Positions 21,181 through 24,047 of a DNA stretch of 61,803 bases are shown here, one piece after another. Position 1 is the first letter of the stretch, and every line of letters begins with the position of its first letter. The notes beneath the pieces are model-generated. The model saw only the letters and a list, made by a program, of their open reading frames with translations, was not told the DNA's origin and did not search any database. Both the position numbers and the translations under genes were made by a program. The DNA comes from Muribaculaceae bacterium (GTDB lineage: Bacteria > Bacteroidota > Bacteroidia > Bacteroidales > Muribaculaceae): contig JAIDUH010000030.1 in assembly GCA_029060285.1 (NCBI GenBank), positions 1 to 61,803 of the forward strand, given 5' to 3'.

Positions 21181-21288
21181 GGGTTCTAAGGGCTTTAAGG
21201 GCTTTAGGGGCTTTAAGGGCTCTAAGGGGTTTAAGGGCTTTAGGGGCTCTAAGGACCTTAAGGGCTTTAAAGGCTCTAGGGGCTTTAG
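21181..21288. repeat. Tandem array, 12 x 9 bp (GGGCTTTAA-like)
   Basis: gggttctaa gggctttaa gggctttag gggctttaa gggctctaa ggggtttaa gggctttag gggctctaa ggaccttaa gggctttaa aggctctag gggctttag. Confidence 0.95.
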
Positions 21289-24047
21289 TAGACTAAGAGT
21301 GTGGCGCCGTTTTTGGGGACGTTGAGCTTAAGCTTGCCTTTCTTGTCGGCCTTGACAGTCTTGAGGGAGCCATTCAGGTCTTTGTCGTCGCTATACATTG
21401 AGATTTGCTTGCCTGCCTTGATGCCGGGGAGCTCGATCTCAGTATTCAGCGGTGCTTCCTCCGCATTTATGGCAGCTACATACCAGTTTTCGCCACTCTT
21501 GCGGGCCATCACCAAATATTTGCCCGGATATCCGTCAATGAACTTCACTTCATCCCAAGTAGTAGGCACGTTCTTCATGAAGTCAACTGCCCAAGAGGGA
21601 GCGTCCTCAAGATTGTTTGGTGCCATTGCAAAGTGTTGCACCGGACTTTGGAAAAGGACTGCTGTAGCAAGGGCAAAGACATCGCTTGTCATGCGTTTTG
21701 AGCCACGTTTGTTGTCGGCTGAATAATACTTATTGAGGGTGCTTCCACCAAAATCCATGCTTCCGACAGTATTGCGCACAAACGGATGAATGCATGCGTT
21801 CTTGGCTTCTGCATCACACATTCCCTGAGAAAAATGAAGGTTTTCACTTGCGAGTACTGCTTCTGCAGCCGCAAAGTTAGGATACATCCTGTCCCAGCCT
21901 CTTGGCAGAGTACAGCCATGGAATATCACAAGGATTCCATGATCGTTGGCATCGGCAAGAATGTCATGATAGAGACGCATTGTCTCCTGCTTGTCACCAC
22001 CGAAAAAGTCAACCTTTATGCCGCGTATGCCGTTTTTCTGCATCCATTTCATGTCCCTACGACGCTTCACGATATCGTTCATTACACCGCGAGGCCCTTG
22101 GGGAGCATCATTCCAGTTTCCGTTGGAATTATACCACAGATATAGGTCAACGCCTTTCTCCTTGCCATATTTAGCAAGTTTCTCGATACCATCATATCCT
22201 ATCTGAGTATCCCATAGGGCATCCACAAGGACTGTATCCCAGCCCATGGCAGCAGAAAAGTCGATATATTTCTTTTGCTCTTCGAAATTACAGCTTGGAT
22301 CCATCTTAATTATCCAGCTCCAGCTCCCTTTTCCATAATCATAGTCCTTGGTTGGCTCATAGATTTGCTCCACTAGGTCGAAAGGAATGGTAGTCTCGAC
22401 TATAGGAGCAAGATCAGAGCCAACTGTCACAGTCCGCCAGGGAGTGAAACCGGGGAGTGCAATCTGGGCGCCTGAAGAACCGAAACCATTATTCTCCGCC
22501 TGCATTGGATAGGCCACAGCATATTCGCCATCTTTCTTATTTGCAAGATGAGATGCACAATAGTTTCCTGCAATTCCAGTCTCAGAAACCAAAGTCCAAC
22601 CGTCATTACCTTTTTTGAAAAGGCAAGGGAATGTATAGCCATTGCCCCAGCCGTTCTTGCCCATCTGATCATCGAGGTCATAATTAGTCTCATAGCTGGG
22701 GGCAGTTCTTGCAAACCCGGTCATAGGTTGCATTTGAGGGCAAAGGAATGTAGTGGTCGTTTCCGGGAAATTGAATCCGGTAATCTCATTATTTATCACT
22801 GCACTAAGGGTCTCCCCCTTCGGAAGCACCTTATATCTGAAAGCGACATTATTGTCGCTGACACGCATCTGGACATCAAAGACAGGCACCCCGGCTTGCG
22901 AAACAGTAAACGTCTCTTCGTTGGCTATATAATCCACCTTACTTTTCTTGATATTGGAGAGAGAGTAAGAGTCTGCCACTTCCTTAACACCTGAAGCAGA
23001 GGTGATATCCAGACCTGAAGTGTAATCTCCAATATTGGTCTGGAGCCCGAGTGGAGACGGGAGTATGAACTGATGTCCATCATAGGCTACACTGTATGTC
23101 ACATTCATACCATTGTCAGTGACAGTCACGACTGTCTTTCCGTCCGGACTCTTCAATTCATAAGTGTCAGGCTTGAAATTAGCCTCAGCGGAATAATTGA
23201 GAACCGGATTGTCTATACCCATCGTCTTTAGCATTTCCTTAGCATAACGACTGCCAAGCTCACGATAGGCATAAGCCGTGAAATGAAGCCCGTCTCCACG
23301 CTGCGGGAGATTGGCAGATGAGACCACATGAGCAGTCGGGATCACCTCAGGAAGAGTAGCAATAATAGCATTGTGGCTGCCACACACACCACCTTTATCA
23401 GAGGAGACGACTTCACCTGCTATCAAAGGGATTGAATTAGGAGCAAGTTCGAGATCTGCGAGAAGATCATCATAGACTTTCTTCACTTTAGTCGGCCACT
23501 CCTTGTCGCCGGTGTTAGACTCACCCTGATGCAACAAAATACCCTTGATCACACCATCTTTCTGTGCTTTCTTGGCACATTCCACGAGGCGGTCGTATGG
23601 TTTGTTGTCATATGCTTTCATAAAACCTTGAAACCAATCAGCCTCCGAAGTAACAGAAGCCGGATCATAGTCTTTGCTCAGATGCTCTATCTTGCATCCA
23701 CCTACAGCAACCGGAACGACACCGACGGTGACATTTTCAGGAAGATTGTCCACCATCGTACGGCCGAAATAATCGGCAGGGGTAAGCCCTGTATTCTCTC
23801 GCACCAATGGGGGAACTGCTACATACCACTCCCCTTTCTTGCGCTCGGGATGATTGTAGTCTACAGCCGACATGACCTTGAAACGCTCCGGTACGTTCTG
23901 ACGGTCGACAGCTTCCACGCGTGCATTACCTTCCATATTTGACTGCCCGAGGCACAAATATATGTGGAAGTTTGGATCTAGTGCGTAGGCTGTCAGGGCA
24001 GCCATTATCAGAGTGGAACCTAACATTAGGGATTTCAATCTTTTCAT
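21285..24047 (-). CDS. CE6 (SASA-type) carbohydrate esterase fused to GH97
   Basis: 920 aa; N-terminal esterase ([52 protein letters not shown]) followed by GH97 ([91 protein letters not shown]). Confidence 0.92.

What the first reader, a model, noticed from the sequence alone, without database searches (positions are those of the whole stretch)
21285..24047. CE6-type esterase fused to GH97 in one polypeptide
One 920-aa ORF carries a full SASA/CE6-like esterase ([27 protein letters not shown]) followed by an apparently complete GH97. Its esterase half closely resembles the neighbouring stand-alone CE6 (24212..25660), and its GH97 half resembles the stand-alone GH97 at 9358. Inference: deacetylation and alpha-galactoside removal are coupled on a bulky acetylated side chain.
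Basis: partly seen in the sequence, partly recalled or inferred. Interest (0 to 1): 0.65.

Follow-up and report, generated by a model that had tools for sequence, protein, structure and literature searches.

The report
Esterase fused to GH97 xylan debrancher
A gut bacterium's xylan-digesting gene cluster makes one protein holding two complete enzymes, one predicted to strip acetyl groups and one predicted to cut off a terminal sugar; the same two enzymes have been joined at least three separate times in related bacteria, in both orders, which suggests they work on the same piece of fibre.

Summary
Minus-strand ORF 21285-24047 (920 aa) is one reading frame with a signal peptide, a complete SASA/CE6-like esterase (27-274), a ~20-residue linker and a complete GH97 (298-914). 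Catalytic residues of both halves are conserved, and orthologous fusions in six other MAGs or genomes rule out an assembly join. It lies in a large glucuronoarabinoxylan PUL.

Beyond the finding: (1) the reverse order, GH97-CE6, occurs in related Muribaculaceae with a different CE6 lineage; (2) a separate CE6-GH97 fusion occurs in rumen/horse Bacteroidales; (3) relatives keep the two as adjacent genes at the same PUL position. Trees, AU tests and three fixed junction lengths (17, 7 and 0 residues) indicate at least three origins.

Corrections: the fused CE6 is not a recent copy of its neighbour (68% identity, separate clade). The GH97 half is only ~31% identical to the GH97 at 9358. Its nearest solved relative is BT3661 (5XFM), a beta-L-arabinopyranosidase/alpha-galactosidase, but it sits in a distinct clade with altered active-site motifs, so 'alpha-galactosidase' is plausible, not shown. 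No paper found describes this pairing. Fusion is common in these PULs, so interest is moderate. Verdict: new architecture of a known kind.

The parts
21285..24047 (-). CE6-GH97 fusion gene, 920 aa
   Evidence: Single open frame; four Pfam domains above cut-off; orthologous fusions in L007, L008, L009, L011, L012, L090
23982..24047 (-). Predicted signal peptide (residues 1-22: [22 protein letters not shown]), no lipobox Cys, so probably periplasmic
   Evidence: Read from sequence; no signal-peptide program was available; inference
23226..23969 (-). SASA/CE6-like esterase domain, residues 27-274; triad S36 (23940-23942), D252 (23292-23294), H255 (23283-23285)
   Evidence: Pfam; residues present in every CE6 row of the alignment; fold match 1ZMB/2APJ
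23157..23225 (-). Linker, residues 275-297; 17 residues by the uniform measure, constant across this fusion lineage
22368..23156 (-). GH97 N-terminal beta-sandwich domain, residues 298-560
   Evidence: Pfam
21564..22334 (-). GH97 catalytic barrel, residues 572-828; D680 (22008-22010) aligns with the BtGH97b nucleophile D415, E735 (21843-21845) with its acid/base
   Evidence: Pfam; alignment to 3A24 and to the D415G mutant 5E1Q; conserved across the family
21306..21560 (-). GH97 C-terminal domain, residues 830-914
   Evidence: Pfam
24212..25660 (-). Stand-alone CE6-like esterase with an extra ~170-aa C-terminal domain without Pfam match
9358..11166 (-). Second, distant GH97 (602 aa), a different GH97 lineage
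   Evidence: 31% identity to the fused GH97; Pfam; PDB search
2836..52859 (.). Host PUL: GH127, GH43 (x4), GH95, GH97, GH31 (x2), GH10 (x2), MFS, CE6-GH97, CE6, GH5, CE1-like esterase, two SusC/D pairs, DUF5627, hybrid two-component sensor, GH115
   Evidence: Pfam

Best explanation
The gene encodes a two-headed, probably periplasmic xylan-debranching enzyme. The N-terminal CE6-like head (Ser-Asp-His esterase) is proposed to remove O-acetyl groups from imported glucuronoarabinoxylan oligosaccharides. The C-terminal GH97 head, a retaining exo-glycosidase, is proposed to remove a terminal alpha-D-galactopyranosyl or the stereochemically equivalent beta-L-arabinopyranosyl residue. Acetyl groups near the terminal sugar would block GH97 or downstream enzymes, so tethering keeps both activities at one oligosaccharide and in equal amounts. 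It most likely arose from an adjacent CE6>GH97 gene pair, still seen in relatives at the same PUL position, by deletion of the CE6 C-terminal domain, its stop codon, the spacer and the GH97 signal peptide. The pair was fused at least three times, including in reverse order with a different CE6, so benefit from physical linkage is likely but a fixed geometry is not required. Shown: architecture, conservation, recurrence, PUL context. Inferred: activities, substrate, location, synergy.
For: Domain completeness, conserved catalytic residues, model and fold matches. Low dN/dS in both halves where it can be computed (0.02-0.06; dS near saturation). Xylan PUL content. B. ovatus precedent: periplasmic GH97/GH31/GH95 in PUL-XylL and a GH97 active on pNP-alpha-Gal (PMC4491172), plus CE6 domains of CE6-CE1 fusions with acetyl esterase activity (PMC7110780). 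Conserved gene order with separate CE6>GH97 genes in L014, L015, L017, L019, L021, L076 and fusion in L008, L011, L012. Junction sequences. At least three origins: AU tests reject one clade for all CE6-GH97 and for CE6-GH97 plus GH97-CE6, in both the CE6 tree and the GH97 tree; junction lengths 17, 7, 0.
Against: No activity data for this protein. Fusions of many kinds occur in these PULs (GH97-GH43-CBM6, GH43-like-GH97, GH10-CE1, GH43-CBM6-CE1), so fusion alone is weak evidence for coupling. Most sampled GH97 of this clade (63 of 93 distinct) have no CE6 beside them. For the analogous FjCE6-CE1 and CE15-GH8 proteins no intramolecular synergy was seen. The AU groups were defined by architecture rather than by the tree, but sampling is limited.
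Confidence: 0.6

Rival explanations
1. Neutral or expression-driven fusion: two adjacent genes of the same operon lost the stop codon and spacer; linkage only fixes stoichiometry and export and brings no catalytic cooperation.
For: Adjacent CE6>GH97 pairs are 16-140 bp apart or overlap slightly in relatives; other fusions are common in the same PULs; a related fusion, FjCE6-CE1, shows no synergy.
Against: The same pair recurs in reverse order with a different CE6 lineage, while a separate CE6 is kept beside L025's GH97-CE6. Each fusion is kept across several species, with low dN/dS in the CE6-GH97 lineage where computable.
Confidence: 0.3
2. The GH97 half has another specificity (beta-L-arabinopyranoside or an undescribed xylan side-chain sugar), so the coupled step is not alpha-galactoside removal.
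For: Nearest solved relative is BT3661, beta-L-arabinopyranosidase/alpha-galactosidase. The contig 164 copy is closer to BT3661 (920 vs 768 bits), and the fused clade has its own motifs: WSWII[KG]MD and LWYNSNGxWNDAPQ against WSWILWQD and LWYSSSGYWNDIEQ. It fails the alpha-galactosidase equivalog cut-off.
Against: A GH97 of the B. ovatus complex-xylan PUL cleaves pNP-alpha-Gal, though which GH97 clade it belongs to was not determined here.
Confidence: 0.35
3. Assembly artefact or frameshift joining two genes.
For: The window is from a fragmented draft genome (224 contigs, 81% complete).
Against: The same junction and 17-residue linker in six other MAGs or genomes at 69-91% identity; coding constraint on both halves.
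Confidence: 0.01

Closest known systems
BoCE6-CE1 (BACOVA_03435) and FjCE6-CE1 (Fjoh_3878), multicatalytic esterases of xylan PULs (PMC7110780)
   Same: N-terminal CE6 of the same broad lineage (Flavobacterium CE6-Esterase proteins of 905 aa, such as L043, are ~57% identical to this CE6 half), signal peptide, xylan PUL, second catalytic domain after the CE6
   Different: Second domain is a CE1 esterase, not a glycosidase
[quoted passage not shown]
   Same: GH97 half 52% identical, TM 0.96-0.97, retaining-type catalytic residues
   Different: Single-domain enzyme; different clade and active-site motifs
BACOVA_03423, GH97 of B. ovatus PUL-XylL, active on pNP-alpha-galactoside (PMC4491172)
   Same: GH97 in a complex-xylan PUL with GH95, GH31, GH115, GH43, GH10
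   Different: Described as a GH97 without mention of an esterase domain; sequence not compared here
BeCE15A-Rex8A, CE15-GH8 (PMC8417218)
   Same: Multicatalytic esterase + glycoside hydrolase in a Bacteroides xylan PUL with a short linker
   Different: Glucuronoyl esterase and reducing-end xylanase families
BT1871/BtGH97b (3A24, 5E1Q), retaining alpha-galactosidase
   Same: Retaining GH97, D415 and its acid/base conserved
   Different: About 20% identical; fails the NCBIfam equivalog cut-off

Membership tests
GH97 (retaining branch) | GH97_N, barrel and GH97_C domains | tested here: met
   fold match to 5XFM
GH97 (retaining branch) | Asp nucleophile on beta-strand 4 in place of the inverting-branch glutamates | tested here: met
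   D680 in KVDFFGGD aligns with D415 of BtGH97b (rule from PMC10086023)
GH97 (retaining branch) | Catalytic Ca2+ ligands | not tested
   No ligand-level comparison was made
NCBIfam retaining alpha-galactosidase NF053844 | Score at or above the curated cut-off (800 bits) | tested here: not met
   174.8 bits
beta-L-arabinopyranosidase/alpha-galactosidase, BT3661 type | Active-site strand motifs of 5XFM | tested here: not met
   Different motifs in the fused clade; activity not testable here
CE6 / SASA esterase | SASA domain with GQSN Ser and DxxH Asp/His motif | tested here: met
CE6 / SASA esterase | Formal CAZy CE6 assignment | not testable with these tools
   CAZy/dbCAN models not available; only Pfam SASA and similarity to CE6-CE1-type proteins
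CE6 / SASA esterase | Acetyl esterase activity on xylan | not testable with these tools
   Bench assay needed
Multicatalytic CAZyme of a xylan PUL | Two complete catalytic domains in one exported polypeptide inside a SusC/D locus with xylanases | tested here: met
   export inferred from the N-terminal sequence

The most novel reading that the evidence does not exclude
Repeated, order-independent fusion of CE6 and this GH97 clade marks an undescribed xylan decoration in which an O-acetyl group and a terminal alpha-Gal or beta-L-Arap (or unknown) residue sit close together and must be removed by one enzyme; the GH97 clade has a new specificity.
Probability: 0.2. Interest if true: 0.6.

Novelty: new variant of a known kind. 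Interest (0 to 1): 0.42.

Why it matters
Independent fusions in both orders are a natural experiment: they point to two steps of complex-xylan breakdown that seem to belong together, and they give matched constructs (CE6-GH97, GH97-CE6, separate genes) for testing whether domain order or proximity matters in multicatalytic enzymes. They also single out a GH97 clade whose substrate is unknown, in a bacterial family of the gut.

Tried and rejected
Assembly or frameshift artefact: rejected by independent orthologues. Recent tandem duplication of the neighbouring CE6 as source of the fused half: not supported by the CE6 tree; a deeper common origin of the fused and stand-alone lineages is not rejected (p-AU 0.22), nor is grouping with the separate CE6 of L014-L017 (p-AU 0.28), so the exact donor is unresolved. 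The GH97 at 9358 as a close relative: rejected (31%). Long open-frame values first looked like more fusions; for G346 and G223 the genes are separate. A 9-bp repeat array next to the gene as cause of the fusion: the repeat is scattered through this genome and was not clearly found around the fusion genes of L008, L009 and L012, so it cannot explain an older fusion. Rfam: nothing at 17000-30000. Prior art: searches for CE6-GH97, GH97-CE6 and related terms gave no paper describing the pairing; subscription journals and CAZy/PULDB could not be searched. The AU test for L010+L078 as one GH97 clade did not finish, so the rumen/horse fusions may be one or two events.

Full report
Observation. The minus-strand ORF 21285-24047 encodes 920 aa without interruption. 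Pfam places SASA at 27-274, GH97_N at 298-560, the GH97 barrel at 572-828 and GH97_C at 830-914, all well above cut-off and nearly full length. The first 22 residues look like a type I signal peptide without a lipobox cysteine (read by eye). An AlphaFold model from 50 related sequences has mean pLDDT 87 and pTM 0.72. Its GH97 part matches 5XFM (beta-arabinopyranosidase) at TM 0.96-0.97, and its N-terminal part matches the acetylxylan-esterase-like structures 1ZMB and 2APJ. Ser36, Asp252 and His255 of the esterase, and Asp680 and Glu735 of the GH97, are present in every relative aligned over those positions. Asp680 aligns with Asp415 of BtGH97b, the residue mutated in 5E1Q; that the Glu is the acid/base is from general knowledge of BtGH97b. 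GH97 enzymes with an Asp nucleophile on beta-strand 4 are the retaining branch (PMC10086023).

Not an artefact. The same architecture, with the same 17-residue junction, is found in L007, L008, L009, L011, L012 and L090 at 69-91% identity. dN/dS is 0.02-0.06 in both halves where it can be computed, although synonymous sites are close to saturation and several comparisons cannot be computed.

Context. The locus has two SusC/D pairs, a hybrid two-component regulator, GH10 (x2), GH5, GH43 (x4), GH115, GH95, GH127, GH31 (x2), a second GH97, a CE1-like esterase, a stand-alone CE6 and an MFS transporter. This resembles PUL-XylL of Bacteroides ovatus, where GH31, GH95 and GH97 are periplasmic debranching enzymes and the GH97 cleaves pNP-alpha-galactoside (PMC4491172).

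The fusion is recurrent. Among 93 distinct GH97 of this clade in the fetched loci, 9 are CE6-GH97, 9 are GH97-CE6, 11 follow a separate adjacent CE6 gene, one precedes one, and 63 have no adjacent CE6; one more CE6-GH97 came from the order-wide survey (G707/L116). GH97-CE6 occurs in other Muribaculaceae, mostly a different genus (L020, L022, L023, L025, L065, L099, L108, L110) and once in the window's own genus (L111). The CE6 halves of the two orders are different lineages: GH97-CE6 forms one clade (100/99); the window-type CE6-GH97 forms another (99/99) inside the clade of separate Muribaculaceae CE6; the rumen/horse CE6-GH97 (L010, L078, L116) form a third (98/83). Holding all CE6-GH97 together, or CE6-GH97 with GH97-CE6, is rejected by AU tests in the CE6 tree (p 2.5e-5 and 2e-54) and in the GH97 tree (p 1e-4 and 2e-4). 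Junction lengths are constant within each lineage and differ between them: 17, 7 and 0 residues. Hence at least three origins; the rumen/horse group could hold more than one, because its GH97 halves sit apart.

How it arose. At the same PUL position, between GH5 and the MFS transporter, L014, L015 and L017 carry CE6 then GH97 as separate genes, L008 carries the fusion, and the window, L007, L011 and L012 carry a stand-alone CE6 plus the fusion. The separate CE6 usually has a ~170-aa C-terminal domain that the fusion lacks. The junction joins the CE6 just after its '(Y)SEE' linker to GH97 just after its signal peptide. A deletion covering the C-terminal domain, stop, spacer and signal peptide explains this. 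Whether the fused CE6 descends from the copy now stand-alone in the window or from the one seen in L014-L017 is not resolved (p-AU 0.22 and 0.28).

What it does. The esterase half is most likely an acetyl esterase: CE6 domains of the CE6-CE1 fusions BoCE6-CE1 and FjCE6-CE1 are acetyl esterases that help xylanase (PMC7110780), and Flavobacterium proteins of that architecture found here are ~57% identical to it. The GH97 half is a retaining exo-glycosidase. [quoted passage not shown] However, this genome has a closer BT3661 relative on contig 164 (920 vs 768 bits), and the fused clade differs systematically at active-site motifs. The NCBIfam alpha-galactosidase equivalog is not met. Alpha-galactoside removal is therefore plausible, not established.

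Why the link may matter, and limits. Recurrence in both orders argues that co-location of the two activities is useful while fixed geometry is not. Against this, fusions are common in these PULs: GH97-GH43-CBM6 (L107), a GH43-like domain with GH97 (L149, L150), GH10-CE1 (L146) and GH43-CBM6-CE1 (L144). Some related multicatalytic enzymes show no synergy. A neutral or expression-driven fusion therefore remains a serious rival.

Novelty. No paper in the searched library names this pairing. Multicatalytic esterase-glycosidase proteins in xylan PULs are a known kind, so this is a new variant.

Noticed in passing
24212-25660 and 25729-27762: The stand-alone CE6 and the GH5 share a ~170-aa C-terminal domain without Pfam match, followed by a similar tail ([10 protein letters not shown]...GIYI.DGKKI.K): possibly an undescribed carbohydrate-binding domain plus a sorting-type tail.
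   Followed up: partly
21187-21287, 25680-25719, 29024-29059: Arrays of a 9-bp repeat (TAAGGGCTT) flank genes here; near-matches to three units occur 61 times in this genome and 0 times for the reversed-pattern control, several at contig ends. Similar arrays in L011, none clearly in L008, L009 or L012.
   Followed up: partly
L107:223-3450: A GH97 of the same clade is fused to GH43-CBM6 in one 1075-aa ORF.
   Followed up: partly
L149:436-3315 and L150:899-3775: GH97 proteins of the more distant (about 50% identical) group carry an N-terminal GH43/GH32-like domain in one ~960-aa ORF.
   Followed up: partly
L146:2548-4728 and L144:203-2674: Other fusions in related xylan PULs: GH10-CE1-like esterase and GH43-CBM6-CE1-like esterase.
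   Followed up: partly
L065: Record JAMPDC010000001.1 is titled Staphylococcus sp. but carries a Muribaculaceae-type xylan PUL; probably a misnamed MAG.
   Followed up: no
18587-19978 / 19722-21134 and 29154-30587 / 30367-32652: Neighbouring same-strand ORFs overlap by about 220-260 bp, so at least one predicted start in each pair is probably too far upstream.
   Followed up: no
G000 contig 164:1121-2980 (L002): A second GH97, closer to BT3661 than the fused one, lies elsewhere in this genome.
   Followed up: partly
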